Part shown: positions 15,784-64,000 of the stretch, piece after piece
Numbering within the stretch: position 1 is the first letter of the stretch
How the letters are laid out: each line of letters begins with the position of its first letter
DNA from: Lachnospiraceae bacterium
Lineage (GTDB): Bacteria; Bacillota; Clostridia; Lachnospirales; Lachnospiraceae
Assembly (NCBI GenBank): GCA_024681595.1
Contig: JAILAN010000080.1
Coordinates: forward strand, 1 to 64,000
Direction of reading: 5' to 3'
Length of the DNA stretch: 64,000 nucleotides
The notes under the pieces: model-generated
Told to the model about the DNA's origin: nothing
Databases searched by the model: none
The model's input: the letters and a program-made list of their open reading frames with translations, nothing else
Made by a program: the position numbers and the translations under genes

Positions 15784-16314
15784 ATGTTCAAAAAACTCTA
15801 TCCAACCAGATTCATTGCATCGTCTTATGATATCGATTATGAGAACCTCTACGAAGAAGGATACAGGGGCATTATCTTTGATATAGACAATACGCTGGTT
15901 CCTCATGGTTTTCCGGCTGATGAACGCTCGATCACCCTGATGAAAAGGCTGAAAGATATTGGATATCGTGTGTTATTTTTGTCAAACAACAAAGAAGACC
16001 GTGTGAAAATGTTCAATGATGATGTCGATTGCCTGTACATATACAAAGCGGGTAAACCGGGTAAAGCCGGCTATATGAAAGCCATGGATAAAATGGGCTC
16101 TGAGCCGGGCAACACCTTAATGGTAGGAGACCAGCTCTTTACAGATATCTGGGGAGCCAACAACGCCGGAATAATGTCGATACTGGTCAAACCTATAGAC
16201 AAAAAAGAAGAGATCCAGATCGTTCTTAAAAGGATAGGAGAGAGGATCATCCTTCATTCATACAGACGATACTGCGAAAGGAACGGTAAAGTATACCTGG
16301 AAAATGGAAATTAG
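15784..16314 (+). CDS. yqeG: YqeG family HAD IIIA-type phosphatase
   Basis: YRGIIFDIDNTLVPHGFPADE; MVGDQLFTDIWGANNAGI. Confidence 0.92.
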   Translation: MFKKLYPTRFIASSYDIDYENLYEEGYRGIIFDIDNTLVPHGFPADERSITLMKRLKDIGYRVLFLSNNKEDRVKMFNDDVDCLYIYKAGKPGKAGYMKAMDKMGSEPGNTLMVGDQLFTDIWGANNAGIMSILVKPIDKKEEIQIVLKRIGERIILHSYRRYCERNGKVYLENGN

Positions 16315-17578
16315 AAGATCAGGCCTCATAGGGCACCCGCTCGGACATTCGATTTCACCGGATATTCACAACTATCTCGGCCGGAGACTGGGGGTAGAAG
16401 TAGATTATACTCTTATGGATACTTCGAAAGAGGATCTGGAGAGCAGCATACTTGGTCTGGCGGAAAACGGAATATGCGGTGTTAATGTAACGGTCCCGTA
16501 CAAAACAGATGTTATCAAAAATCTTAACGATATAAACGATGCTGTCTCCGCAATCGGAGCGTGCAATACCATAGTTACAAAAGACGGCAGATTAACAGGA
16601 TATAATACGGACTGCCTGGGGCTATCCAGGGCCCTTAAAGATCACGGTATCACGCTTAAAGACAAAAGAGTTGCGATACTGGGAGACGGCGGAGCATCCA
16701 AGGCTGTCAGATATGTATGTAATTCCGAAGGAGCCGCTAAGATCCTTCAGTTTAACAGGACTGTCAGGCAGGATAACATCCTGCCGCTTGAAGATGCACC
16801 AGGATATGCGGCAGGTGAACAGTTTGACGTGGTCATTCAGTCCACCAGTGTCGGCATGCATCCTGACTGCAGTGCCTGTGTTATTGACGATATGGCTTTT
16901 TATGAAAATGTACGTACGGGCTATGACATAATTTATAATCCCCTTGAAACTGAATTTATGAAGAGGATAAAGGGATGCGGCGGCACAGCTCATAATGGTC
17001 TTAGAATGCTGCTGTACCAGGGTGTAGAAGCTTTTAAGCTGTTTCACGGTGTTGCGGATATCGCTCATGATATAGAGATGGACTGTTTCCTTAATATGCT
17101 CATAAGTATGAACCGCGCTCTGGTTCTTTGCGGCATGATGGGTTGCGGCAAGAGCACCATCGGCAGACGTCTGTGCGATGATTCGGGATATATTTTTATC
17201 GATACAGATGAAATGATCGAATCTGATACCGGGATGAGTATAAATGACATTTTTGCGAAAATGGGAGAAGAGGCGTTTCGCAGGATGGAAAGTGATACTC
17301 TTATCAAACTGAATAAAATGCTTGATAATGATCCGTCACATAAATATGTGATATCGCTTGGCGGAGGAATGTGTACAAAGAACAATATACCGCTCATACG
17401 ATCACTCGGCGTTACGGCTTATCTGAGGCAAAATGCTCAAACGCTGGCGGCCAGACTTAAGAATGATACTAAACGGCCGCTGCTTAAAAATGACGATACA
17501 TTAAAGACCATAACCGATCTTTTAAATAAACGTGAATCTCTTTATATGGAGGCCAGTGATGAAATTGTTGATTATTAA
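16304..17578 (+). CDS. Bifunctional shikimate dehydrogenase / shikimate kinase (AroE-AroK fusion)
   Basis: N-terminal half: IGHPLGHSISPDIHNYLG, GVNVTVPYKTDVI, GDGGASKAVRYV; C-terminal half: LCGMMGCGKSTIGRRLCD P-loop, ISLGGGMC. Confidence 0.93.
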   Translation: MEIRRSGLIGHPLGHSISPDIHNYLGRRLGVEVDYTLMDTSKEDLESSILGLAENGICGVNVTVPYKTDVIKNLNDINDAVSAIGACNTIVTKDGRLTGYNTDCLGLSRALKDHGITLKDKRVAILGDGGASKAVRYVCNSEGAAKILQFNRTVRQDNILPLEDAPGYAAGEQFDVVIQSTSVGMHPDCSACVIDDMAFYENVRTGYDIIYNPLETEFMKRIKGCGGTAHNGLRMLLYQGVEAFKLFHGVADIAHDIEMDCFLNMLISMNRALVLCGMMGCGKSTIGRRLCDDSGYIFIDTDEMIESDTGMSINDIFAKMGEEAFRRMESDTLIKLNKMLDNDPSHKYVISLGGGMCTKNNIPLIRSLGVTAYLRQNAQTLAARLKNDTKRPLLKNDDTLKTITDLLNKRESLYMEASDEIVDY

Positions 17579-51151: not shown

Positions 51152-51174
51152 GTATACTTTTAGTATCTTATAAT
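51152..51174 (+). promoter_or_regulatory. ATAC-N5-GTAT inverted repeat and adjacent -10-like TATAAT upstream of hybrid kinase gene
   Basis: GTATACTTTTAGTATCTTATAAT. Confidence 0.45.
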
Positions 51175-51222: not shown

Positions 51223-53376
51223 ATGAGCAATTTTTCAAAACGATGGAACAGAATAAAACAGATCATTGTACCACCGGGAAGTGACATCCAGATCGGTGCT
51301 TTTAATATCCTCGCGCTCTGCGGTATCGTGGTCAGCCTGATCACTGCTTTTTATAATCTTGCAGTCGGTTTTGGGATCCTTTCCTTTTTGGAATGTATAT
51401 CCGGAGTTTTTATTTCTGTGGCACTGATGCTATATACTCAAAAGACCGGCAACTACAGGGTGGCGATGATCCTTACGGTAGTGGTTATCTTTCTTGGCCT
51501 TTTTACGTTTCTTTTTATCACCAATGGCGGTTATAACGGCGGAGTCCCGTTCTTTTTTGTGTTTGCCGTTGTATTTACAGCTTTTCTTCTCAACGGCGCT
51601 ACGATGGTGTTTCTGGTCGTAGTTGAGCTGGTCTGGTATACGTTTCTTTGTATATACACTTATGTTTATCCTCCTGATTCATTGCTGAACACGGATTACA
51701 AGGCTCGTATGATGGATGTGATCGTCTGCTGCTCGATAGTCTCTATCAGTCTTGCTATCACCATGTATTGTCAGATCAGGGTGTACAGGAAAAAGCAGGC
51801 GGAACTCAACTATGCGATACAGATCGCAAGGGAGGCCAACCAGGCAAAAAGTGATTTCCTGGCAAAAATGAGCCATGATATCAGGACCCCGCTTAACACG
51901 ATCATGGCGATGAATGAGATGATAGTTGCCAACACATCGTCAGCCAAGATAAGGGAATGGGTCAATGACAGTAATGTTTCGGGCAGGATCCTGCTGTCTT
52001 TGATCGATGACATGCTGGATCTTACCAGGATAGAAGCAGGGAGAATGAATCTGCTGCAACAGCCGTGGGATACAAGGCATGTTTTTGGAGAGATAGCCAA
52101 AATGTGGAAACCCCAGGCTGAAAAAGCTGGAATAGAATTTATATATTCATTTGATACAGGCATGCCCGGATATCTTGTGGGTGACGAAGATGTTATAAGG
52201 AAGATAGCAAACAATCTCATGAGTAATGCGATCAAATACACCAGGATCGGGCGGGTTGGCCTTAGTGTCAGTCGCAGCGGAGAGGATCATATCAGGATCA
52301 CGGTAACTGATACGGGGATTGGTATAGCACCCGAACATCTCGAGACGATATTTAAACCTTTCGAACGTGGCGCACAGGAGATATACAGAGAAACAAGCGG
52401 AAGCGGACTTGGACTGGCGATCGTAAAAGAACTGGTCGATGCCGTGGATGGCAGCATTGACTGCCACAGCGTTCTGAATGAGGGAACCGTGTTTACGGTT
52501 ATAATCCCTCAGAAAGAATATAACGAAAAAATTATCGGGGGGAGTCAAAGCGAAACTCCCGACAACTCACAGGATGTCCAGAATAAAGGTCAGTTCATAG
52601 CACCTGATGCGAGGATACTAGTTGTTGATGATAATTCCTTTAACCGTAAGGTCATAAAGGAGTTTCTTGAACCTGCTCTTATTCAAACCGATGATGTAGA
52701 GAGCGGATACGAAGCTCTCGAGATGATAGATATTAAAGATTATGATCTGGTTCTGATGGATCTTAGAATGCCCAAAATGGATGGAGCTGAGACCCTTGAT
52801 CGGATCAAAAAGGAGTATCCGGATTTTGATACTCCGGTTGTAGTACTTACCGCGGATATCATGAACGGAGTTGAAGACAGGCTCCTTAAAAGAGGATTCG
52901 CCGGCTTTCTGTCTAAACCGGTCAGCTCATCAAAACTTTTTGATGTAATATCCGAATTTATCCCCGACAAAGTAGTTTCCCTTATCACCGAAACCGATAA
53001 TCTGCTCACATTGGCCAAAGTAGAGAGTTACCAGGATATGTTATTGCCGTATGGGATCGATCTTAAACTGGCTCTTGAGTATAATGCCGGCAACACCAGT
53101 GAGTTTATGATGCGTGCCGACCTTTTTGAAGAGTTTGCTGACTCTGAGATCAACAGGCTTTACGAAGAAGTACCCAAAGACAGCTATTATCTTCAGGTTC
53201 ATTCTGTTAAATCGATCGCCAAAGGTGTGGGAGCATTTCTTTTGGCACATATGGCCGAAGCTGCAGAATTAAGGCATGATGAGGAATTCTCCAAAGAGAT
53301 CAATCCTATTCTGATAAATGAGTATTCAAGAGTCCGTGAGGGACTGAAGCATTTTAAGGAGGAGGTATCGATATGA
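51223..53376 (+). CDS. Hybrid sensor histidine kinase (TM sensor, HisKA, HATPase, receiver, C-terminal HPt)
   Basis: FLAKMSHDIRTPLNTIMAMNEMI; DTGIGIAPEHLETIFKPFERG; receiver DLVLMDLRMPKMDGAETL; HPt-like VHSVKSIAKGVGAFLLAHMAEAAE. Confidence 0.94.
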   Translation: MSNFSKRWNRIKQIIVPPGSDIQIGAFNILALCGIVVSLITAFYNLAVGFGILSFLECISGVFISVALMLYTQKTGNYRVAMILTVVVIFLGLFTFLFITNGGYNGGVPFFFVFAVVFTAFLLNGATMVFLVVVELVWYTFLCIYTYVYPPDSLLNTDYKARMMDVIVCCSIVSISLAITMYCQIRVYRKKQAELNYAIQIAREANQAKSDFLAKMSHDIRTPLNTIMAMNEMIVANTSSAKIREWVNDSNVSGRILLSLIDDMLDLTRIEAGRMNLLQQPWDTRHVFGEIAKMWKPQAEKAGIEFIYSFDTGMPGYLVGDEDVIRKIANNLMSNAIKYTRIGRVGLSVSRSGEDHIRITVTDTGIGIAPEHLETIFKPFERGAQEIYRETSGSGLGLAIVKELVDAVDGSIDCHSVLNEGTVFTVIIPQKEYNEKIIGGSQSETPDNSQDVQNKGQFIAPDARILVVDDNSFNRKVIKEFLEPALIQTDDVESGYEALEMIDIKDYDLVLMDLRMPKMDGAETLDRIKKEYPDFDTPVVVLTADIMNGVEDRLLKRGFAGFLSKPVSSSKLFDVISEFIPDKVVSLITETDNLLTLAKVESYQDMLLPYGIDLKLALEYNAGNTSEFMMRADLFEEFADSEINRLYEEVPKDSYYLQVHSVKSIAKGVGAFLLAHMAEAAELRHDEEFSKEINPILINEYSRVREGLKHFKEEVSI

Positions 53377-53990
53377 GTCGTAAGCGTGTAATGATCATAG
53401 ATGATGATGAAGAAACATTAAAACTCATGGTACATCAGCTGGAGGCTCTTTATGACGTATCCGGATTCACTTCCGGAGAGAGTGCTCTGGAAGCCTTAAG
53501 CAGAGTGGTCAGCAGAAATCATCTTCCCCAGCTTATACTGCTGGATATCTCTATGACCGGAATGGATGGATATGAAGTCCTTAGCAGGATCAAATCTAAT
53601 GAGAGACTGAAAATGATACCGGTGGTTTTTCTGACAGGTATGACAGATGAACTGTCAGAATGCAAAGGACTTGAGATGGATGCTGTTGATTATCTCAAAA
53701 AACCGATCGCAGGCAAGGTTCTTTTTGCGCGTGTCCAGCATTATCTGGATCTTTATTCAGACACTTCGGTAAAGGGAGGCAAGCTTGACGAGACTAAATT
53801 GAAAAATCTGATCGAACCTCTTACCGAAAGAGAACTTGAGGTAGCAAGGCTGATGGGAGAGTTCCGGTCGGATCGTGAGATCTGCGATATTCTGTATATT
53901 TCAATGCCTTATACCAAAAAGCTTGTGTCGTCTGTCAAGGAGAAACTCGGACTTGAAAAGCGGGGAGACATAAGAAGGTATCTTATATGA
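53373..53990 (+). CDS. Response regulator with LuxR-type HTH
   Basis: MIIDDDEETLKLMVHQLEAL; LILLDISMTGMDGYEVL; LTERELEVARLMGEFRSDREICDILYISMPYTKKLVSSVKEKLG; overlaps the kinase gene by 4 nt. Confidence 0.92.
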   Translation: MSRKRVMIIDDDEETLKLMVHQLEALYDVSGFTSGESALEALSRVVSRNHLPQLILLDISMTGMDGYEVLSRIKSNERLKMIPVVFLTGMTDELSECKGLEMDAVDYLKKPIAGKVLFARVQHYLDLYSDTSVKGGKLDETKLKNLIEPLTERELEVARLMGEFRSDREICDILYISMPYTKKLVSSVKEKLGLEKRGDIRRYLI

Positions 53991-53996
53991 CAAGAT

Positions 53997-54031
53997 TATA
54001 CTTTTGGTATATATCGTAAGACAATCTTACG
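53997..54031. promoter_or_regulatory. Two adjacent inverted repeats upstream of the secretion locus
   Basis: TATACTTTTGGTAT (53997-54010) and CGTAAGA-CAA-TCTTACG (54015-54031). Confidence 0.5.
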
Positions 54032-54084
54032 TAATAGTATATAAAGGTAGTTTTAACCAAATTAATCAAGAGGGGTAAATCAAG

Positions 54085-55542
54085 ATGATTGATGAAAATC
54101 TGAACAACAACAGCACCGAAGAAACTGCGGCGTTGTTCATTGGCGCACAAAAGAGAAAAAAGGCCGAAGAAGAAGCCAGAAAAAAGGCTGAGGAAGAACA
54201 GGCAAAACGTGATGCGGCTGAAGCTGAAGTCCGCAGGATGGAGCAGGAGATCGAGGAGCAGAAAAGAAAGGCCGAAGAAGAGCGCAAAGCACTTGAAGAG
54301 GCTGAAAGATTAAAGGCTCAGCAGGATCTTAAGGAAAACATCAAAGAGGGTATCAAAGAAGGCGTTAAAGATGCCATCAAAGTTGCTGTCGGTGAAAAGA
54401 ATAAGGAAAAGTCAAAAACAGCAAAGATCGTAGGTATCGCGGTAGGTTCTGTTGCAATCATCGCTATCGTGGTCGGCATCATTCTGGCTATCAAGAACAG
54501 AGGACATGCCATCGATTATGCGGAACTTGACTTTGACGGAACCTACAAGATCAAGGAAGACGGTTATGGTTTTGAATTAGCTTATCCCGAGGAAGTCTAT
54601 GAAAGCGTTTCCGAAAAGGCAGATGGTAGTTCCGTAGCCGTTTATTTTGAAACAAAAAACAAAAAGGCACCCAATACGATTGTTTATATGATTGACACTG
54701 AAGATCCGGCGCCGGCCCTTCAGTTCGATGTTGAATATACTCTTGATGAGCTTAAATCTACTTCGCAATCTTACATTGAAGATTACGATGTCATTGATGA
54801 TTCAAAGACCAGAATATCAGATGACCCCGATTACTATTTATATCAGGCGACATATCAGGTTCAGGAAGATATTTTCGGTGCAGTTGCAAGCTGGTATACG
54901 CTGAACGATGAAGGAAAGGTATTCTTTACAACGGCCATTTCCTTCGGAAACAGTAAAGACGAAGAATCCGCTGAAAACATGATCGATATGTTCATGTCCG
55001 AGAATATGGATACTGCTCTGAAGACTCCCGGCGCTTATCCTGTCGACGAATATGACTGGGACGGTGCCATAGGTATCGAGCAGGTTAACTTTAAGGTTCC
55101 GGTCTCAAAAGACAGATTCCAGGAATTAAAGAAGTTCAATAACGAAGGTGAAAGAGTCTACATAGACAAGAACGGTACGATCATCATCCTTGCAGGTGTT
55201 AAGCTTGCAGAAAAGGATGGATTTGCGATCCTTGAAGATCAGGTACAGAGTTTCTACGATGCATTCAAAAAGATCGCTGACAACGGACTTCCCGAGATCA
55301 AGGCCGAAAGCAGAACTTTCTTTTCAAGTACGGACTCGCCCTTCGGATATGTAGACAGCTTTAACGAGTATACAACGATATACAATGGTATCCAATACTG
55401 GGAGAGAGACTACGCCGTGGTTTGGGAAGGTACAGATGCCATGTACGCAGCTATCGTATATACATATGTTCCAATGGAGACCAAGGATAAGTATAAAGAC
55501 ATCCTTGATAAATCCATTGAGGACCTTGACACATACAGATAA
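54085..55542 (+). CDS. Coiled-coil / single-TM / ectodomain protein, T7SS-locus paralog 1
   Basis: N-terminal Lys/Glu/Ala-rich coiled coil (AEEEARKKAEEEQAKRDAAEAEVRRMEQEIEEQKRKAEEERKALEEAE), TM TAKIVGIAVGSVAIIAIVVGIILAI, then ectodomain with YGFELAYPEEVYE. Confidence 0.85.
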   Translation: MIDENLNNNSTEETAALFIGAQKRKKAEEEARKKAEEEQAKRDAAEAEVRRMEQEIEEQKRKAEEERKALEEAERLKAQQDLKENIKEGIKEGVKDAIKVAVGEKNKEKSKTAKIVGIAVGSVAIIAIVVGIILAIKNRGHAIDYAELDFDGTYKIKEDGYGFELAYPEEVYESVSEKADGSSVAVYFETKNKKAPNTIVYMIDTEDPAPALQFDVEYTLDELKSTSQSYIEDYDVIDDSKTRISDDPDYYLYQATYQVQEDIFGAVASWYTLNDEGKVFFTTAISFGNSKDEESAENMIDMFMSENMDTALKTPGAYPVDEYDWDGAIGIEQVNFKVPVSKDRFQELKKFNNEGERVYIDKNGTIIILAGVKLAEKDGFAILEDQVQSFYDAFKKIADNGLPEIKAESRTFFSSTDSPFGYVDSFNEYTTIYNGIQYWERDYAVVWEGTDAMYAAIVYTYVPMETKDKYKDILDKSIEDLDTYR

Positions 55543-55566
55543 TCGCTACGAAGGGAGAATCGGATA

Positions 55567-57060
55567 ATGAGTGATGAAATCCTGAACAACAACGAAAACG
55601 AAGATACTTCGGCGTTGTTCGTGTCAACACAAAAGAAAAAGAGGGCCGAAGAAGAAGCCAGAAGAAAAGCTGAAGAAGAACAGGCCAAAAGAGACGCCGC
55701 AGCAGCCGAAGTTGCAAAGATGGAACAGGAAGTTGAGGAGCGTCGAAGAAAGGCTGAAGAAGAAAGGCTGGCTCTCCAGAAAGCCGAAGAAGAAGCAAAA
55801 CAGCGCAAGAACGATCTTGCAGCCAAAGCTGATACTTCCGCTACACAGGAAGCTGTAAGAGCGGCTATTGAGGGAACTGCAAAGAAGATCAAGGACAGCA
55901 AAGTACCTAAGCTTATCGGTCTTATCGCAGGTGTTGTAGTTTGTATTGCTATCTGTTTGACGGTAGTGCTTACCATCATTGAAAAGAACAGTTTCCACAT
56001 TGATGATGTAAACGTTGATGAAAAGTACACATCAAAAGAAGCCGGTTATGATATCGAGCTCATGTATCCGGGAGAGCTTTATCCCGAGATATCAGAAGAT
56101 AAGACCGATGATGGGGTATCTATCCTTTTTGAGGAAGCAAAGAAAAAGGGAATATCTACAAAGATCGTTATAAGTGACCTTGTTGATGATGACAAAGATA
56201 AGGTGAACAGAGACGAAGCTCCATTCTATGCTGTAAAAGACTTTAAGAGCTATCTTGCAAGGACATCAGAGGAACAGCTCAACAATGCATTGGACGGAGT
56301 AAATATCAAAGATACTGAAGAGTGCTCATACTCTGAAGATGATCCGGGTGCATATTCTATTACCTATAAATTCAATACGGATGAATACAGCAGCGGAACC
56401 GCCTATGCGTGGATAGAGCCCAACAGCAAACTTGATTACAAAGTTGTTTCGGTCATCTGCTTCTCAAAGAGCGAAGATCAGGTAGTCGTTGAGGAATTCA
56501 GGGACCTTATCACAGCTAAAAATGCAAAGGATGCATTTGCAATGCCCGGCGCTAATCCTCCCAAAGCTACCGAAGTTGACGGTACACTTGAAGAAAACAC
56601 GATGCACATGCTGATCCATGTTCCTAAAGATATGTTTGTTAAGTGGTCAGGCAGTTCACCTTCTTTTTCGGTATGGACCGATGATAACGGAGCAAAGATC
56701 ATCATTCAGCCTGTTGACAGTACGATCGAAGGTGATATCACAAGTGCTCAGGCCGATGTTTTGTTTGAAGGATTAAAGGAGATTGCAGACACCGGTGTCA
56801 GCGGAATGTTCACCACTGTTGAAGCCAGAACACTCATAAGTGAAGACACTTCCAAAAAAGGATGGGTAGGATATACCGCAGATTACCAGACCGTGATGAG
56901 CGGTGTTACCTATTGGGAGAGGATACGGCTTTCGCTTTGGACCGACGAGACCACGGGACAGAAGTATTGGGCTTTTATAATCACACTTGCTCCCGAAGTG
57001 AACAAGAATGATTACAAGGTGATCTTTGATAAGACGATTGCAACTTTGGAAGATCTATAA
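55567..57060 (+). CDS. Coiled-coil / single-TM / ectodomain protein, T7SS-locus paralog 2
   Basis: N-terminal coiled coil near-identical to the preceding protein (AEEEARRKAEEEQAKRDAAAAEVAKMEQEVEERRRKAEEERLALQKAEEE), TM LIGLIAGVVVCIAICLTVVLTII, ectodomain with YDIELMYPGELYP. Confidence 0.85.
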   Translation: MSDEILNNNENEDTSALFVSTQKKKRAEEEARRKAEEEQAKRDAAAAEVAKMEQEVEERRRKAEEERLALQKAEEEAKQRKNDLAAKADTSATQEAVRAAIEGTAKKIKDSKVPKLIGLIAGVVVCIAICLTVVLTIIEKNSFHIDDVNVDEKYTSKEAGYDIELMYPGELYPEISEDKTDDGVSILFEEAKKKGISTKIVISDLVDDDKDKVNRDEAPFYAVKDFKSYLARTSEEQLNNALDGVNIKDTEECSYSEDDPGAYSITYKFNTDEYSSGTAYAWIEPNSKLDYKVVSVICFSKSEDQVVVEEFRDLITAKNAKDAFAMPGANPPKATEVDGTLEENTMHMLIHVPKDMFVKWSGSSPSFSVWTDDNGAKIIIQPVDSTIEGDITSAQADVLFEGLKEIADTGVSGMFTTVEARTLISEDTSKKGWVGYTADYQTVMSGVTYWERIRLSLWTDETTGQKYWAFIITLAPEVNKNDYKVIFDKTIATLEDL

Positions 57061-57084
57061 AAGTAAAGGTAAAGGGGTTTATAT

Positions 57085-60000
57085 ATGAGTTTCTTATTAA
57101 CAGCCGTTTTTGAAAACGGATTTTGTGAATTGTATCTTCCCAGCGTTGATAACCGTAAGGTCCCGCTGGAGATAAAGCCATACATAAGCGGAAGGGATGA
57201 AGAGATCATTCTGCCTGTGGAAGTATGGGACGGTGTATGGACGATATCCGGAAACGGAATGTTTACCATCACTCAGAACGAAAAAGTAATAGAAAAAGCA
57301 GAGCTTAAGGACGGCCTTTTTGTAAACTGTGAATTCAGTGACGGCCAGGTATTTTCGCTTACTGCCGAGGAGGTTACTGACGGTAATAAGCAGTTTAAGA
57401 AATATCTGCTAAAGGCTGATGCTAAGACCATTACAATAGGTAATGATCCTTCAAACATGATCTGCTACTCGAATAAGTTCGTATCACCCAAACATGCCGA
57501 GATCAGCATTTCTGACGGCAATGCCGTTATAAAGGATCTCGGGAGCATGAACGGTACCTTTGTCAACGGCAGAATGATGGAGGGCGAAAGACCGCTGAAA
57601 TTCGGTGATGTTATTTACATTATCGGACTTAAGATAGTTTATCTGGGAAATTCGCTTGCTGTAAATGATCCCAGAAACAGCGTTAAGATCAGTGAACTTA
57701 AAGAGATAAACATCTCAACCGCAGGAAATGGTGAAGACGTGATCCCCGAGGTTGAGGAAGAAAAGTATTTCTTACGTACTCCCAGAAAACTTGAGCTTCT
57801 GAACAAGGATACTTTCACACTTGAGAAATGTCCGCCCAGACAAAAGATGGAAAAGCAGCCTCTGCTTCTGACTATAGGTCCTTCGTTTACGATGATAATT
57901 CCTATGGCACTCGGAGCAGCATTATCAATGGGGGAGGGCTTTGCGGGAGCCGGACTCGTAATGAGTATCGGAGCTGCAGCCATTGGCGCAATATGGGCCA
58001 TCGTCAATACCAAACATCAGGATAAGGTATATGCCGAAAATGAGAAAAAGAGAGTTGAATCTTATCAGGCATATGCGACCAAAATGACTGGTGAGATACG
58101 TGAAAGAATGGAGTATAACACAGGAGTTCTTGAGCGTAGATATCCTTCTGCCGATGAAGCAGCTGAGATAGGTATTAACGAGACATCAAGGCTCTGGGAA
58201 AAGAGTTGGACTCATGATGACTTCCTTGATGTAAGACTCGGTAAAGCCAATATTCCTTCTTATAATAATATCGAGACTCAAAAAGAGCAGGCATTGCAGG
58301 AATTTGATCCTCTGAACAACAAGGCAGGAGAGATCAAACTAGCAATGTCTATGCTTAAAAATGTTCCGGTTTCTCTGTCTATATATAATAACCGGTTTGC
58401 GGGAATCGTGTCTGCTAACAGAGAAAGGGCCCTTAATCTTGCACGGCTCATGACTGTACAGCTTGCGAGCGCACACCCCTATACGGATGTCCGTATGTGT
58501 GTTGTCTTCCCGCTGAAAGAAAGAGATCAGTGGAATTACATGAGATACCTTCCTCATGTCTGGTCACCGGATGGCAAGATCCGTCTTATGTGCTGTGATA
58601 AAAACAGTGTCGGTGACGTTATGTACTTCCTTTCGGGAGTTATACGTGATCGTATGGACAGTAACGGCAAAGAGGCTGCAAAAAGAGAAGAAGGTAAGAA
58701 AATACTTCCGCATTATGTTTTCTTTATTGCCGACTACTCACTTCTTGAGGAAGAACCTATCAACAAGTATCTGCTCAACCCCAAGGAAGAGCTTGGTATC
58801 TCGGTTGTCATGCTGGCTGATTCACCGGATAAGCTTCCGAGCAACTGTACAGCTATAGTAACGTTTAATGATAATGATCACAGCATTGTTTCAACGACCA
58901 ATTCTTTCCCCGCCAGAGAAAACGTTGTGTTTGATTCGCTCGAGGAAAGTAAAGCCGACAGATTTGCCAGAACATTATCGGGTGTTCATCTTCGTGAGAC
59001 CGGTGTTTCGACGGCGATACCTGATATGCTGACATTCCTTGATATGTACAAGACCTCCAGCGTCGATAATCTGGATATCTACCACAGATGGCTCGAGAAC
59101 CGCACATATGAGAGTATGAGAGCGATGATCGGATACAAGTCAGGTAATCAGCCGCTGTACCTCGATATACATGAAAAATATCACGGACCTCACGGTCTGG
59201 TTGCAGGTACTACAGGTTCTGGTAAATCAGAGACGCTGCAGAGTTATATCCTGTCACTTGCCATTAACTATCATCCCGATGAAGTCGCTTTCATCCTTAT
59301 AGACTATAAGGGTGGCGGAATGGCACAGAGTTTTGAGGGACTGCCTCATGTATCCGGTGTTATCACAAACCTTGGCGGAAATGCGACCAACAGAGCTCTG
59401 TTGTCCATAAATGCCGAGATAAAGCGCAGACAGAAACTGTTCAACGACTTTAAGGTTAAGCATATTGATGCATATATAGAGCTTTATCGCTCCGGAGTTG
59501 CCACTGAGCCCATGCCTCACCTGCTCATCATCGCCGATGAGTTTGCAGAGTTAAAGAAAGAACAGCCTGAGTTCGTACGTTCACTCGTATCAGCAGCCCG
59601 CGTGGGACGTTCTCTTGGTGTAAACCTTATACTTGCAACCCAGAAGCCTTCCGGTGTTGTTGATGATGAAATCTGGTCAAACACAAGATTCCGTCTCTGC
59701 TTGAGAGTTGCAGACAAGTCTGATTCAAATGAAATGATCAAGAAGCCGGATGCAGCATATATTACCGGAACAGGACGCGGATACTTCCAGGTAGGAAGTG
59801 ATGAGATCTTCGAAGAATTCCAGTCAGGCTGGTCAGGAGCAGCTTATGAGCCCGAGGTGGCATTCAGTGATGAAAAGAACGCCAAGGTTGAACTGATAAA
59901 CCTTATCGGTAAAAACGGAGTTCCCAAGAAGAAGGATAAGAATAAGAAATCAGACAATATACAGAGTGTTACCCAGCTTGATGCTATCGTAAAATATGCA

Positions 60001-61680
60001 GCAAAGATCGCGGAGGAACACGAGATCCCGGCTGTACGCCAGATATGGCTGCCGGCGCTTAAGAACAAACTGTATCTTAGCGAACTGTCTTCGGATAAGG
60101 CAGAGGCAAAAACGCTTTGTGTTCCTATCGGACTTGCCGACAATCCGGAGATCCAGAGTCAGTATACGGCATATGTTGATTTCCTTTCAGACGGAAACCT
60201 TCTTATATGCGGAAGCGCCGGCTCAGGTAAGACCACGCTTCTTCAGACTATCATCTATGGTGCGGTTACGAGATATTCTGCATCAGAAATAAATGCGTAT
60301 ATACTCGACTTCTCTTCACGTACAATGACGGTATTTGCTTCAATGCCTCATATCGGTGGCGTATGCTTCGACGGTGATGATGATAAGCTTAATGATACAT
60401 TTGAGTTCTTCTCATCTGAACTCGCTTCAAGAAAGAAGAAATTTGCAAGTGTCGGGATCGGTTCATACAAAGAATATATACAGCATAATGATGACTGTCC
60501 TGCATTGCTTCTTATCATTGATAACTTCATTTCTTTCTATGAGAATTATGACAAGTATGAAGATGATCTGTCAGTTATCACCAGAGAAGGCGTGAGCTAC
60601 GGTATTTATACGGTCATCACGGCCAATAATTCCGGTGATCTGCGAAGCAGACTCAGACAGAACTTTAATAAGGGCATAGCACTTCAGATGCCAGACAGAT
60701 TTGAGTATGAAGCTGTTGTCGGTGATCACACCGAGATCGTTCCCGAAGGAAAGACACCCGGCCGAGGACTTATCAAATCACCTGTATGTGTTGAATTCCA
60801 GGTTGCACTTCCGGTTGAAGAGACAGACGGTCTTTCACAGGCCCAGAGTATAAAGAAAGCTCTATCCGGAATAGAAGTCGACCCTGCAAAGAAGGCTGCA
60901 AAAAAGCCCGGACAGGTTCTCGATTCTCTTGGTATCAAGGAACTCCTGGAAGAAATAAAGGATTATCCTGAGAACCTCTTTGCACTAGGAAAGACGGTAG
61001 ACGGCGAGAATGTGATCACCGTTGATATGGATAACGAATACTGTCTTAGCATTATAGGCCTTGGTAAGACAGGAAAGACCAACATGCTGAAGGCTCTGGC
61101 ACTTGAAGGAGTCAAAAAGGGTGACAGTGTTATCATCTTTGACGGAAAGAACGAAGAGCTGAAGGATTTTGCATTGGAAAACAAGATCAGCAAATATATC
61201 ACTGATGATTCAGGACTCTTTGCACTCATGCAGGATGAGATAGTCGGAGAATTCGGTGAGCGTAACGGCATAGTCAATGACGCCAGAGATAACGGCAGAT
61301 CGATTCCCGAAGCTCTTAAGGATAAAAAGAGGATCCTTATCCTCATTAACGATTATGAGTCATTTATCGAGACAGTATATTCAGAGAATTTTGAAATGAA
61401 CTCATTCTTTGAAGTTGCTCTTGAAAAGGGGCGTGATCATAAGATCCAGTTCGTTGCGGCTCTTACGGCAGATGAGGTTTCGGACTGTGCCAGATATCAG
61501 GCTTCACGCCAGTTTACCTCCATGGAAAGCGGGGTTAACATGGGCGGAATGTTTGACCAGCAGAATGTACTTCGCTGGGAGATGACATCAGCTGATGCTG
61601 TAAGACAGCTTCCGGCAGGATTTGGATACGCTCTTTCCAAAGACGGAACTCCTGTCAGATTGATCACACCGTTGGTATAA
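57085..61680 (+). CDS. essC: Type VII secretion FtsK/SpoIIIE-family ATPase, EssC-like, with N-terminal FHA domain
   Basis: FHA: ITIGNDPSNMICYSNKFVSPKHAEISISDGNAVIKDLGSMNGTFVNGR; two TMs; ATPase modules GLVAGTTGSGKSETLQSYI/LLIIADEFAEL, LLICGSAGSGKTTLLQTII, and a degenerate third IIGLGKTGKTNMLKAL. Confidence 0.95.
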   Translation: MSFLLTAVFENGFCELYLPSVDNRKVPLEIKPYISGRDEEIILPVEVWDGVWTISGNGMFTITQNEKVIEKAELKDGLFVNCEFSDGQVFSLTAEEVTDGNKQFKKYLLKADAKTITIGNDPSNMICYSNKFVSPKHAEISISDGNAVIKDLGSMNGTFVNGRMMEGERPLKFGDVIYIIGLKIVYLGNSLAVNDPRNSVKISELKEINISTAGNGEDVIPEVEEEKYFLRTPRKLELLNKDTFTLEKCPPRQKMEKQPLLLTIGPSFTMIIPMALGAALSMGEGFAGAGLVMSIGAAAIGAIWAIVNTKHQDKVYAENEKKRVESYQAYATKMTGEIRERMEYNTGVLERRYPSADEAAEIGINETSRLWEKSWTHDDFLDVRLGKANIPSYNNIETQKEQALQEFDPLNNKAGEIKLAMSMLKNVPVSLSIYNNRFAGIVSANRERALNLARLMTVQLASAHPYTDVRMCVVFPLKERDQWNYMRYLPHVWSPDGKIRLMCCDKNSVGDVMYFLSGVIRDRMDSNGKEAAKREEGKKILPHYVFFIADYSLLEEEPINKYLLNPKEELGISVVMLADSPDKLPSNCTAIVTFNDNDHSIVSTTNSFPARENVVFDSLEESKADRFARTLSGVHLRETGVSTAIPDMLTFLDMYKTSSVDNLDIYHRWLENRTYESMRAMIGYKSGNQPLYLDIHEKYHGPHGLVAGTTGSGKSETLQSYILSLAINYHPDEVAFILIDYKGGGMAQSFEGLPHVSGVITNLGGNATNRALLSINAEIKRRQKLFNDFKVKHIDAYIELYRSGVATEPMPHLLIIADEFAELKKEQPEFVRSLVSAARVGRSLGVNLILATQKPSGVVDDEIWSNTRFRLCLRVADKSDSNEMIKKPDAAYITGTGRGYFQVGSDEIFEEFQSGWSGAAYEPEVAFSDEKNAKVELINLIGKNGVPKKKDKNKKSDNIQSVTQLDAIVKYAAKIAEEHEIPAVRQIWLPALKNKLYLSELSSDKAEAKTLCVPIGLADNPEIQSQYTAYVDFLSDGNLLICGSAGSGKTTLLQTIIYGAVTRYSASEINAYILDFSSRTMTVFASMPHIGGVCFDGDDDKLNDTFEFFSSELASRKKKFASVGIGSYKEYIQHNDDCPALLLIIDNFISFYENYDKYEDDLSVITREGVSYGIYTVITANNSGDLRSRLRQNFNKGIALQMPDRFEYEAVVGDHTEIVPEGKTPGRGLIKSPVCVEFQVALPVEETDGLSQAQSIKKALSGIEVDPAKKAAKKPGQVLDSLGIKELLEEIKDYPENLFALGKTVDGENVITVDMDNEYCLSIIGLGKTGKTNMLKALALEGVKKGDSVIIFDGKNEELKDFALENKISKYITDDSGLFALMQDEIVGEFGERNGIVNDARDNGRSIPEALKDKKRILILINDYESFIETVYSENFEMNSFFEVALEKGRDHKIQFVAALTADEVSDCARYQASRQFTSMESGVNMGGMFDQQNVLRWEMTSADAVRQLPAGFGYALSKDGTPVRLITPLV

Positions 61681-61698
61681 AGGAGGAATCAGGATACT

Positions 61699-61953
61699 AT
61701 GAGTAAGATATTCTTAGAGGCCAGTGTTCCGGGCATAGCTAAAACATATGAGTTTTCAGCTGACCCCGTTATGACGGTCGGAAGCGTAAAAAAGGAAATG
61801 ATAAATCAGATATCGGCGGTCGAAAACATGTCGATTTTTCCGGATCCTGACAAAGTGCTTTTTTGCAGTATAGACATGGAAGGCCTGTTGCAGGATAACG
61901 AAACACTCGGAAGTATAGGAATTAAGAGCGGCGACAGGATAATGCTGATATAA
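61699..61953 (+). CDS. YukD/EsaB-like ubiquitin-fold protein
   Basis: 84 aa between EssC and WXG100 genes; DPVMTVGSVKKEMINQI...LLQDNETLGSIGIKSGDRIMLI ubiquitin-like C-terminal pattern. Confidence 0.82.
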   Translation: MSKIFLEASVPGIAKTYEFSADPVMTVGSVKKEMINQISAVENMSIFPDPDKVLFCSIDMEGLLQDNETLGSIGIKSGDRIMLI

Positions 61954-61963
61954 AGGAGCGCGT

Positions 61964-62269
61964 ATGGCAGATATGACAAATGTTGATCCCGGCAAATTAA
62001 GGCAGGCGGCTCAGAAAATAAGCAGTCTGGCCAGCGATCTGTCGGGTCAGGTGAGCAAGATCAATGATACACTGGATAACCTTTCAAAAGGATGGCAGTC
62101 TGAGACTGCGACCCAGTTTATGAAGAACTGGGCCACGGACAGAGAAGCTCTTCTTGAGATGGTTGAACAGTATAACGAAGTCGGAGAACTTATGAATGAG
62201 CTGGCGCAGGATTTTGAATCTTCAGACAGTGAAGTCAATTCGATGGTCGGCAAACTCAAGCTAAGATGA
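61964..62269 (+). CDS. WXG100-like protein 1 (WQS in place of WxG)
   Basis: ~100-aa helical protein, VSKINDTLDNLSKGWQSETATQFMKNW. Confidence 0.85.
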   Translation: MADMTNVDPGKLRQAAQKISSLASDLSGQVSKINDTLDNLSKGWQSETATQFMKNWATDREALLEMVEQYNEVGELMNELAQDFESSDSEVNSMVGKLKLR

Positions 62270-62285
62270 GGAATAAGGAGGCAAT

Positions 62286-62603
62286 ATGGCTAACGAAACA
62301 AAAGTTGATACCGCGCTGTTGGCTTCGACGGCAGAAGCACTTACGCCGCTTATCAAGAATCTTGAGAACAATTTCGAGCAGTTTCAGCAGGAAGTCAAAA
62401 GTGCAAGAGGGGAATGGCAGGGAGATGCTTCCGATGATATAAGGAATACTTCTGCTCAGTTAAAATCCAGCTCATCAGAGATAATCAGGGTATTTAACGG
62501 ATATGTGAGCGGTCTGAAGGAACTGGCAGGAATCTATGATAAAGCCGAGAATAAGGTTGCAGATACCGGTAAGTCCCTGAAGTTCGACAATACATTTAAG
62601 TGA
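62286..62603 (+). CDS. WXG100-like protein 2
   Basis: 105 aa; FQQEVKSARGEWQGDASDDIR. Confidence 0.87.
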   Translation: MANETKVDTALLASTAEALTPLIKNLENNFEQFQQEVKSARGEWQGDASDDIRNTSAQLKSSSSEIIRVFNGYVSGLKELAGIYDKAENKVADTGKSLKFDNTFK

Positions 62604-62613
62604 GGTATAGTTT

Positions 62614-62907
62614 ATGGCTATAAAATTCAATTATCAGCAGACCATACAACAGGCGCAGGCTATAGAGCAGATGGCAGGCGACCTGTCGAGTAAGACCAAG
62701 TCAAAATTATCGGGAGTCAAGGATAATCTGAACGCTGCCTGGACAGGGGAATCGGGCAAGAATTTTGTTAAGTTCCTTGCCGATGCGGAGACTGATCTTG
62801 ATGCAAAGGCCAAGTATCTTAAGGGAGTCGCAGACTACTTAAGGAAAGCGGCCAAGAAGATCAAAGAAGCGGAAGAGGCTGCTCAGGCATCAGCTTCAGG
62901 TATTTAA
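62614..62907 (+). CDS. WXG100-like protein 3
   Basis: 97 aa; KLSGVKDNLNAAWTGESGKNFVKFLAD. Confidence 0.9.
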   Translation: MAIKFNYQQTIQQAQAIEQMAGDLSSKTKSKLSGVKDNLNAAWTGESGKNFVKFLADAETDLDAKAKYLKGVADYLRKAAKKIKEAEEAAQASASGI

Positions 62908-62921
62908 GAAAAGAGGTTATT

Positions 62922-63227
62922 ATGGCAGCAAAAAATACAGTAAATGTACAAAAGATGAAATCGGCTGCATCAGAACTTGACAGTATATACTCTTCCATGA
63001 CCAAACAGATCAAAAAAATGGATGAGACCATATCATCTGTTAAGAAGATATGGACCGGTGATGCAGCAAACTCATATCTTAAATCATATGAAAAACACCT
63101 TCAGTCTTTTCAGAACATGGCAAATGCCATAAGGTCAGCTTCGGAGGCTCTTGGTGATTCGTGTAACACATACGACCAGGCTGAAAACAGTGCCATGGAT
63201 GTTGTGCAGAAGATGGGCAGACGATAA
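62922..63227 (+). CDS. WXG100-like protein 4
   Basis: 101 aa; DETISSVKKIWTGDAANSYLKSYEK. Confidence 0.9.
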   Translation: MAAKNTVNVQKMKSAASELDSIYSSMTKQIKKMDETISSVKKIWTGDAANSYLKSYEKHLQSFQNMANAIRSASEALGDSCNTYDQAENSAMDVVQKMGRR

Positions 63228-63250
63228 GAAGACGGAGGTAGAGACAGAAT

Positions 63251-63577
63251 ATGGCAGACGGAAATTTAAATGTTGATGCGGCGAAATTAAGATCTCATGC
63301 CGAGTCTATCGATAACGTACAGACATCACTCAAGGAATCATGCTATTCCGCAAAGAGTAAGATCGATTCATTAAAGGGTATCTGGACAGGTACGGCTGCG
63401 GATACCTATCAGTCAAGTTTCACCAAGCTGATGGATGACTGTAATGAAGCCCTGAACACTTTGGGGAAAATGGTCAATTCACTTTATGATTCTGCAGACC
63501 GTTATGAAAAGAGCATTAAGGACGTTCAGGATGCTGTTAAGGATATCCCGAAGCTTCCGACAAATCTGTTTAAGTGA
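63251..63577 (+). CDS. WXG100-like protein 5
   Basis: 108 aa; AKSKIDSLKGIWTGTAADTYQSSFTKLMDD. Confidence 0.9.
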   Translation: MADGNLNVDAAKLRSHAESIDNVQTSLKESCYSAKSKIDSLKGIWTGTAADTYQSSFTKLMDDCNEALNTLGKMVNSLYDSADRYEKSIKDVQDAVKDIPKLPTNLFK

Positions 63578-63594
63578 TAAAAAGGCGGTGAAAT

Positions 63595-64000
63595 ATGGCA
63601 TATAAAGTATCATATAAGGTTGTTTCCGAACAGGGCGAACAGTTAAAGAACATAGCAAAGGATATGGACACTTTCGCATCGCAGTTGGATAAGATCGTAG
63701 CCAAACTGGGTAATGATGAACTGCTTCAGTCAGTCCGGACGGACCTAAATAAATTTCGCAAACAGCTAGAAGAAGAAAAGACAGTACTTAATCTGGCAGG
63801 ACAGATCATAGTGGATGTCATTCAGAGTTACACAGGTGTTGAAAAGAAGAGTGTACAGAAGGTCGATAAGGCTAAAGCTCATAACAGGGACTTTTATAAA
63901 CGTCCTGTAGCCGTAGCATCAGCAGGTGGTGCAGCGGCAGGAGCAACTGTTAATATCAACACTGCAACAGCTACATCTTATCAGAGTACAACTAATGTTT
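63595..64000 (+). CDS. Helical N-terminal protein, truncated by window; candidate T7SS component or substrate
   Basis: ATG at 63595 after AAAGGCGGTG; open to window end: MAYKVSYKVVSEQGEQLKNIAKDMDTFASQLDKIVAKLGNDELLQSVRTDLNKFRKQLEEEKTVLNLAGQII...; same tight spacing as upstream genes. Confidence 0.75.
   Translation, partial: MAYKVSYKVVSEQGEQLKNIAKDMDTFASQLDKIVAKLGNDELLQSVRTDLNKFRKQLEEEKTVLNLAGQIIVDVIQSYTGVEKKSVQKVDKAKAHNRDFYKRPVAVASAGGAAAGATVNINTATATSYQSTTNV

What the first reader, a model, noticed from the sequence alone, without database searches (positions are those of the whole stretch)
53373..64000. Non-canonical type VII secretion locus led by two paralogous coiled-coil membrane proteins and preceded by its own two-component system
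Seen: order is hybrid kinase, LuxR-type regulator, two ~490-aa coiled-coil/TM/ectodomain paralogs, EssC-like ATPase with FHA domain, YukD-like protein, five WXG100-like proteins and a truncated helical protein, all same strand with short gaps. Established: Firmicute T7SSb loci normally include EssA, EssB/YukC (pseudokinase, TM, ectodomain) and EsaA/YueB; none is recognisable in the window. Inference: the two paralogs, with cytosolic region/one TM/ectodomain topology, may be lineage-specific components standing in for EssB or EsaA, or envelope adaptors. The missing genes could lie beyond position 64000.
Basis: partly seen in the sequence, partly recalled or inferred. Interest (0 to 1): 0.85.

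Follow-up and report, generated by a model that had tools for sequence, protein, structure and literature searches.

The report
T7 secretion locus with swappable ectodomain proteins
This Lachnospiraceae-type bacterium carries a type VII protein-export machine that lacks the usual membrane adaptors and instead has fast-evolving, exchangeable surface proteins encoded next to its motor, which looks like a subtype not yet described.

Summary
Beyond 64000 the locus ends with a 217-aa protein; no EssA, EssB or EsaA follows, and EssB and EsaA profiles find nothing over cut-off in this genome or six relatives. Eight genomes share one cassette: regulator, 1-3 'P' paralogs, FHA-EssC, YukD-like protein, five WXG100-family proteins, the 217-aa protein. 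Their EssCs form one clade (support 100).

P proteins have an N-terminal TxxLF motif (invariant, 18/18), a coiled coil, one TM helix and an acidic ectodomain, modelled (pLDDT 89) as two Mog1/PsbP/DcrB-fold domains, unlike EssB or EsaA. Ectodomains are mostly 22-40% identical to the window's where EssC is 77-80%. In one genome the P pair is 83/89% identical, and synonymous sites show recent exchange. One genome also has an unlinked P pair.

A DNA motif lies upstream of both the two-component and the P-essC operons, but five of eight cassettes use a MalT-type regulator.

Most likely P docks on EssC's FHA domains, as EssB does, and carries a variable extracellular head; docking and function are inferred. 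EssC without EssB is usual in this family (53 of 64 EssC-positive genomes), so that absence alone is unremarkable. A new T7SS variant.

The parts
51153..51170 (+). TATACTTTTAGTATCTTA: copy of the shared DNA motif (2 mismatches) upstream of the histidine-kinase gene
   Evidence: 0.03 matches expected per window
51223..53376 (+). hybrid histidine kinase, 717 aa (HisKA, HATPase, receiver)
53373..53990 (+). response regulator with LuxR-type output, 205 aa, overlapping the kinase gene by 4 bases
53997..54014 (+). TATACTTTTGGTATATAT: exact copy of the motif also found before P in L096 and L099; candidate regulator binding site or promoter element
54085..55542 (+). P1, 485 aa: TxxLF motif, coiled coil, one TM (about aa 118), acidic ectodomain
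54118..54138 (+). codons of P1 motif EETAALF (T14, L17 and F18 invariant in 18/18 P proteins)
55567..57060 (+). P2, 497 aa, paralog of P1; ectodomain modelled at pLDDT 89 with Mog1/PsbP/DcrB-fold domains
55600..55620 (+). codons of P2 motif EDTSALF
57085..61680 (+). EssC, 1531 aa: two N-terminal FHA-type domains, TM region, three P-loops
61699..61953 (+). YukD/EsaB-like small protein, 84 aa (weak profile hit; assigned by size, position and conservation)
61964..62269 (+). W1, WXG100 family (WQS in place of WXG)
62286..62603 (+). W2, WXG100 with C-terminal YxxxE
62614..62907 (+). W3, WXG100 without YxxxD/E
62922..63227 (+). W4, WXG100 with YxxxE
63251..63577 (+). W5, WXG100 with YxxxD
63595..64000 (+). 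H217, last gene of the cassette (217 aa, ends at contig position 64248): conserved helical N-terminus, Ala/Gly-rich hydrophobic segment, charged tail; candidate substrate or membrane component

Best explanation
A type VII secretion system of the EssC-FHA (T7SSb-like) branch in which EssA, EssB and EsaA are absent and 1-3 P proteins take the adaptor position. Proposed working: the cytosolic N-terminus of P ([E/D]-T-x-x-L-F plus coiled coil) docks on the FHA module of EssC, probably FHA2, the domain that recruits EssB in S. aureus; one TM crosses the membrane; the acidic ectodomain of Mog1/PsbP/DcrB fold sits on the outer face and contacts an exported protein, a neighbouring cell or the wall. 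EssC with the YukD-like protein exports the WXG100 proteins, probably as partners of H217. A two-component system or a MalT-type regulator switches the operon on. Shown by computation: locus composition, conservation of the cassette, EssC clade, P topology and predicted fold, motif invariance, fast ectodomain divergence, exchange of the P pair, shared upstream DNA motif in two-component-type loci. Inferred: docking on FHA, its possible dependence on threonine phosphorylation, the role of the ectodomain, regulation, and substrate identity.
For: P genes sit directly upstream of essC in 8 of 8 cassettes and their EssCs are one clade with support 100. EssB and EsaA profiles find nothing over cut-off in these genomes (G479 not searched). 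T14, L17 and F18 are identical in 18 of 18 P proteins, including a natural one with almost no ectodomain, while ectodomains are mostly 22-40% identical to the window's. The EssC N-terminus is Pfam FHA and its model best matches EssC FHA structures 5fwh, 9qks and 1wv3. FHA2 keeps S134, H137 and the NGT loop, though the Arg of the pThr pocket is Asn or Lys. In S. aureus FHA2 recruits EssB (PMC9436818); in B. subtilis the FHA region binds the cytosolic domain of YukC (PMC9600267). A Ser/Thr kinase is present in all seven P genomes searched. Ectodomain model pLDDT 89, pTM 0.84, with Foldseek matches to Mog1, PsbP, DcrB, SciW and LpqN.
Against: The Arg of the FHA pThr pocket is lost, so phospho-dependence is doubtful, and a TxxL motif is common by chance. 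The EssC N-terminal model is only pLDDT 63. The P pair exchanges independently of essC, has an unlinked copy, and varies in number from 1 to 3, which is odd for a rigid core subunit. The YukD-like hit is below cut-off.
Confidence: 0.55

Rival explanations
1. The P proteins are not part of the machine but surface immunity or self-recognition proteins: membrane-anchored heads that neutralise or recognise proteins exported by related cells, kept beside essC because they are co-selected.
For: Ectodomains diverge fast and the pair is exchanged between lineages; extra unlinked pair and 1-3 copies; Foldseek also matches T6SS immunity proteins TplEi, Tli4 and Tsi3.
Against: The most conserved part is the cytosolic motif and coil, which an outer-face immunity protein would not need. 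P is next to essC, not next to a toxin, and no polymorphic toxin gene was recognised in the eight cassettes.
Confidence: 0.2
2. The P proteins are envelope sensors that gate EssC: the ectodomain senses a cue and the coiled coil transmits it to the EssC FHA domains, regulating export rather than building the channel.
For: Topology of a sensor; variable acidic ectodomain; conserved cytosolic motif; the cassettes already sit under regulators that differ between genomes.
Against: No ligand-binding site or signalling domain was identified; coiled-coil signalling is only inferred.
Confidence: 0.12
3. A canonical T7SSb whose EssA/EssB/EsaA genes are elsewhere in the genome or lost from the draft assembly; P proteins are accessory.
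For: The genome is a 93.7%-complete draft.
Against: EssB and EsaA profiles give nothing over cut-off in seven P genomes; the P-type EssCs lie far from the EssB-linked EssCs in the tree.
Confidence: 0.04
4. P proteins act as extracytoplasmic chaperones for exported hydrophobic segments, by analogy with Eag-type DcrB/Mog1-fold chaperones such as SciW of type VI secretion, perhaps for the Ala/Gly-rich segment of H217.
For: Foldseek matches to SciW; H217 has a hydrophobic Ala/Gly-rich C-terminal segment.
Against: Eag chaperones work in the cytosol before export (general knowledge), P ectodomains are predicted outside the membrane; the fold similarity is weak (TM-score of target about 0.4-0.5).
Confidence: 0.06

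Closest known systems
T7SSb (Ess/Yuk) of S. aureus and B. subtilis
   Same: FtsK-type EssC with tandem N-terminal FHA domains (TIGR03928 over cut-off), YukD-like protein, WXG100 proteins; a single-pass membrane partner is proposed to contact the FHA domains
   Different: No EssB, EsaA or recognisable EssA; P proteins have no pseudokinase and an alpha/beta ectodomain instead of the all-helical EssB one; five WXG100-family genes and H217 in a fixed order
T7SSc to T7SSj variants (Garrett, Higginson and Palmer 2024, PMC11217815), especially T7SSe/T7SSj-like loci with kinase, Ig-like TsxI and FHA proteins
   Same: EssC with FHA plus YukD-like/WXG100 proteins but no EssA/EssB/EsaA; in the tree the P-type EssCs are sister to a group that includes the kinase/Ig-type Lachnospiraceae loci
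   Different: No kinase, phosphatase or Ig-like protein was found in the P cassettes; P proteins match none of the components described in the main text of that paper. Its supplementary lists could not be read here, and its reference sequences were not in the tree.
Mog1/PsbP/DcrB-fold proteins (Mog1, PsbP, DcrB, LpqN, MTC28, SciW/Eag, T6SS immunity proteins TplEi/Tli4/Tsi3)
   Same: Predicted fold of the P ectodomain domains
   Different: Only about 8-15% sequence identity; P adds a TM helix and a cytosolic coiled coil with the TxxLF motif; no T7SS component with this fold was found in the literature searched

Membership tests
T7SSb | EssC ATPase of the firmicute type | tested here: met
   TIGR03928 1152.9 bits, cut-off 778.4
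T7SSb | tandem FHA domains at the EssC N-terminus | tested here: met
   Pfam FHA at aa 116-179; model of aa 1-230 best matches EssC tandem FHA structures, model confidence moderate
T7SSb | WXG100 protein(s) | tested here: met
   five proteins above the PF06013 cut-off
T7SSb | YukD/EsaB ubiquitin-like protein | tested here: inconclusive
   PF08817 15.9 bits, cut-off 27; right size and position in the cassettes
T7SSb | EssB/YukC | tested here: not met
   PF10140: no match over cut-off in G000 or the six other P genomes searched; B. subtilis control positive
T7SSb | EsaA/YueB | tested here: not met
   TIGR03929 negative in seven P genomes, B. subtilis control positive
T7SSb | EssA | tested here: inconclusive
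   only an 11.8-bit match of P2 to PF10661, cut-off 24.1; no genome-wide search
EssB family (as identity of P) | cytosolic pseudokinase domain | tested here: not met
   no Pfam or NCBIfam hit; 64-135 residue coiled-coil N-terminus only
T7SSe/T7SSj | membrane Ser/Thr kinase TsxD and Ig-like TsxI at the locus | tested here: not met
   the neighbour scan found neither in the P cassettes; both found in L038-L041 by the same scan
Mog1/PsbP/DcrB fold (P ectodomain) | fold match of a confident model | tested here: met
   pLDDT 89; 1jhs E 9.8e-6, 2xb3 TM(target) 0.68; halves align co-linearly by profile, hhalign P 0.005 but probability only 7%
pThr-binding FHA (EssC FHA2) | Arg, Ser, His, Asn of the phosphothreonine pocket | tested here: inconclusive
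   Ser, His and Asn-Gly-Thr kept in all eight; the Arg position is Asn or Lys

The most novel reading that the evidence does not exclude
A secretion machine with a plug-in recognition head: a conserved EssC/WXG100 core carries interchangeable P proteins whose constant cytosolic TxxLF plug fits the EssC FHA domain (possibly switched by a Ser/Thr kinase), while the PsbP-fold heads are swapped between lineages to change what the machine recognises outside the cell.
Probability: 0.22. Interest if true: 0.75.

Novelty: new variant of a known kind. Interest (0 to 1): 0.55.

Why it matters
It adds a T7SS arrangement from Lachnospiraceae beyond the ten lettered types in the 2024 survey and suggests that the EssC FHA module is a general socket that different lineages fill with unrelated membrane partners. 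A 1500-residue motor 77-80% conserved across genomes, paired with ectodomains 22-40% identical and visibly recombining, is a tractable case for asking which part of a T7SS decides target or partner specificity. It also makes the FHA docking question testable with a short peptide.

Tried and rejected
Hidden EssB/EsaA downstream or elsewhere: rejected. P as divergent EssA/EssB: no significant profile hit, different fold. Wide family search with P: 69 of 397 genomes 'matched', but all except the window's own two matches are weak and cover the coiled-coil/TM stretch (a few run slightly beyond it), and were discounted; an ectodomain-only search of 392 Clostridia gave only the window's genome and one marginal partial hit. 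PDB sequence search with the P profile gave no convincing relative, mostly coiled-coil/TM matches. PADLOC: only generic HerA/FtsK-type ATPase similarity of EssC. Enrichment of ET[TSA][AVI]L motifs in other T7SS-locus proteins: 8 against 3.0 expected by shuffling (maximum 6), two of the eight being P itself, so no support. Palindrome CGTAAGA-CAA-TCTTACG at 54015-54031 is not shared by the other two-component-type loci. Literature: no paper in the library holds type VII secretion together with Lachnospiraceae and WXG100, and the few that hold it with Butyrivibrio or PsbP do not, by title and abstract, concern such a system (not read in full).
Full report
What was checked. The window is the first 64000 bases of an 81028-base contig of a draft genome, 93.7% complete, whose nearest named relatives are Lachnospiraceae. 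On the contig, the truncated last ORF is a complete 217-aa protein (here H217), followed by a convergent histidine kinase, a zinc-ribbon membrane protein and glmS. No EssA/EssB/EsaA lies downstream; PF10140 (EssB) and TIGR03929 (EsaA) profiles find nothing in the genome, with the B. subtilis control positive.

The system recurs. A P2 search of the genome collection and profile searches of related genera found the paralog family, here called P, in seven further genomes: L004 (G250), L005 (G251), L096 (G306), L097 (G267), L098 (G323), L099 (G307) and L148 (G479). In all eight loci P lies directly before essC, followed by the YukD-like gene, W1-W5 and H217 as far as the contig reaches (L096 ends after W2). 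P number varies: two in six loci, one in L005, three in L099, of which the first is 171 aa and has motif, coil and TM but almost no ectodomain. G479 has in addition an unlinked P pair beside a lipoprotein gene (L149). Among 397 sampled family genomes and 392 Clostridia genomes only the window's genome has convincing P matches, so the family is narrow: 5 of 79 genomes in the genus of L005 (a sixth match there covers only the coil/TM stretch) and 2 of 5 in that of L004.

Relation to other T7SS. The eight P-linked EssCs form one clade (support 100) on a long branch, sister to a group that contains the kinase/Ig-type loci of other Lachnospiraceae (L038-L041, resembling T7SSe/j of PMC11217815 by gene content) and well separated from the EssB-linked EssCs. 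In 250 sampled family genomes EssC occurs in 64 and EssB in 11, all of them among the 64; EssC without EssB is therefore usual here, and the interest lies in what accompanies it. PMC11217815 describes T7SSc-j; none of the components in the parts read resembles P, and Lachnospiraceae are not mentioned. Its supplements could not be consulted, and its reference EssCs were not available for the tree.

Anatomy of P. The N-terminal 64-135 residues are Lys/Glu/Arg/Gln/Ala-rich coiled coil, then one TM, then usually 345-385 outer residues; net charge of the outer part is -18 to -49 in the proteins that have one. In 18 P proteins the only columns identical in all are M1, T14, L17, F18, E38, E53 and E55. 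The P2 ectodomain model is confident (mean pLDDT 89, pTM 0.84) and shows the same alpha/beta order twice. Foldseek matches are Mog1, PsbP, DcrB, LpqN, MTC28, the T6SS chaperone SciW and T6SS immunity proteins; the two halves align co-linearly by profile (P 0.005, but probability only 7%). This is not the all-helical EssB ectodomain (PMC9600267).

Unequal evolution. Against the window, EssC is 77-80% identical in all seven loci, the YukD-like protein 77-86% and the WXG proteins 59-85%, but P only 28-47% in six of the seven loci; there the first 60 residues of P keep 52-82% while the ectodomain falls to 22-40%. The exception is L004, where P1 and P2 are 83% and 89% identical. Four-fold degenerate sites agree at 72% and 65% in P1 and P2 but 44% in EssC and 43% in a flanking gene, so the P pair appears to have been exchanged recently between these lineages while the rest was not. 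The similar tract starts about the P1 start codon and fades within roughly the first 70 bases of essC. The P and EssC trees disagree accordingly.

Regulation. Window, L096 and L099 carry the hybrid kinase and REC-LuxR pair; the other five carry a MalT-like LuxR protein of about 830-866 aa, and these five loci also have a small gene resembling DUF2442 before P or after H217 (by eye; Pfam 22.3 bits, cut-off 23.9, for the L097 copy). The three two-component loci share TATACTTTTRGKATNTAT before P. The pattern was derived from these three sites; scanning 927 kb with up to two mismatches gave three further sites, of which one is upstream of the window's histidine-kinase gene (51153), one upstream of the lipoprotein-kinase-regulator gene run in L099 (660), and one unrelated (window expectation 0.03). 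This supports control of the cassette by the two-component system and its autoregulation in those genomes.

Mechanism proposed. In S. aureus, FHA2 of EssC recruits EssB and EssA (PMC9436818) and in B. subtilis the FHA region binds the YukC cytosolic domain, apparently without phosphorylation (PMC9600267). The window EssC has the same tandem FHA layout (model only pLDDT 63), and this region is 69-76% identical to the window in the other seven loci. The invariant cytosolic TxxLF of P is the natural candidate ligand; a +3 Leu fits known FHA preference (general knowledge), and Ser/Thr kinases exist in all seven P genomes searched, but the pocket Arg is Asn or Lys, so phospho-dependence is uncertain and docking itself is inference. 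W2, W4 and W5 carry the YxxxD/E signal; W1 has WQS instead of WXG and W3 lacks YxxxD/E, which would fit a set of secretion partners for H217. H217 has a conserved helical N-terminus, then a variable Ala/Gly/Ser/Thr region, a hydrophobic segment and a charged tail; it may be the main substrate or a membrane component. No polymorphic toxin was recognised in the cassettes.

Verdict. This is a new T7SS variant with an unrelated, fast-evolving, exchangeable membrane partner in the adaptor position. The docking and specificity roles are hypotheses with stated tests.

Noticed in passing
G000:C124:22000-41000 (L036); similar locus in G190 (L037): A second EssC in the same genome (1172 aa, aligned from about residue 256 of the window EssC, so apparently without FHA, with YukD-like and WXG-like genes), shared with the one other genome of the genus; a different T7SS subtype with its own neighbours.
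   Followed up: partly
L149:15291-16544, L005:about 16165-16953, L098:13536-13793, L099:734-2724: Lipoprotein-type proteins beside four P loci share domains: L149_13 matches L099_1 (E about 1e-30) and the L005 one (E about 5e-31), as a fusion of two otherwise separate domains; L098 keeps a fragment. Possible envelope partners.
   Followed up: partly
window 54015-54031: Perfect 7-bp inverted repeat CGTAAGA-CAA-TCTTACG next to the regulator motif; not seen in L096 or L099.
   Followed up: partly
L001:2292-4619 (contig 64292-66619): Another hybrid histidine kinase, convergent with the end of the cassette.
   Followed up: no
L001:4713-6353 (contig 66713-68353): Zinc-ribbon protein with an Asp/Ser/Lys-rich stretch, a TM helix and a long C-terminal region; no relation to P was noticed.
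   Followed up: no
L036-L075: T7SS loci in Lachnospiraceae are very diverse: kinase/Ig type, PP2C type, EssB type and many EssC loci with none of these labels in the scan.
   Followed up: partly
L148 and L004 flanks: A 742-745 aa multi-TM protein and neighbouring genes flank the cassette on its left in L004 and on its right in L148, suggesting movement or rearrangement of the cassette.
   Followed up: no
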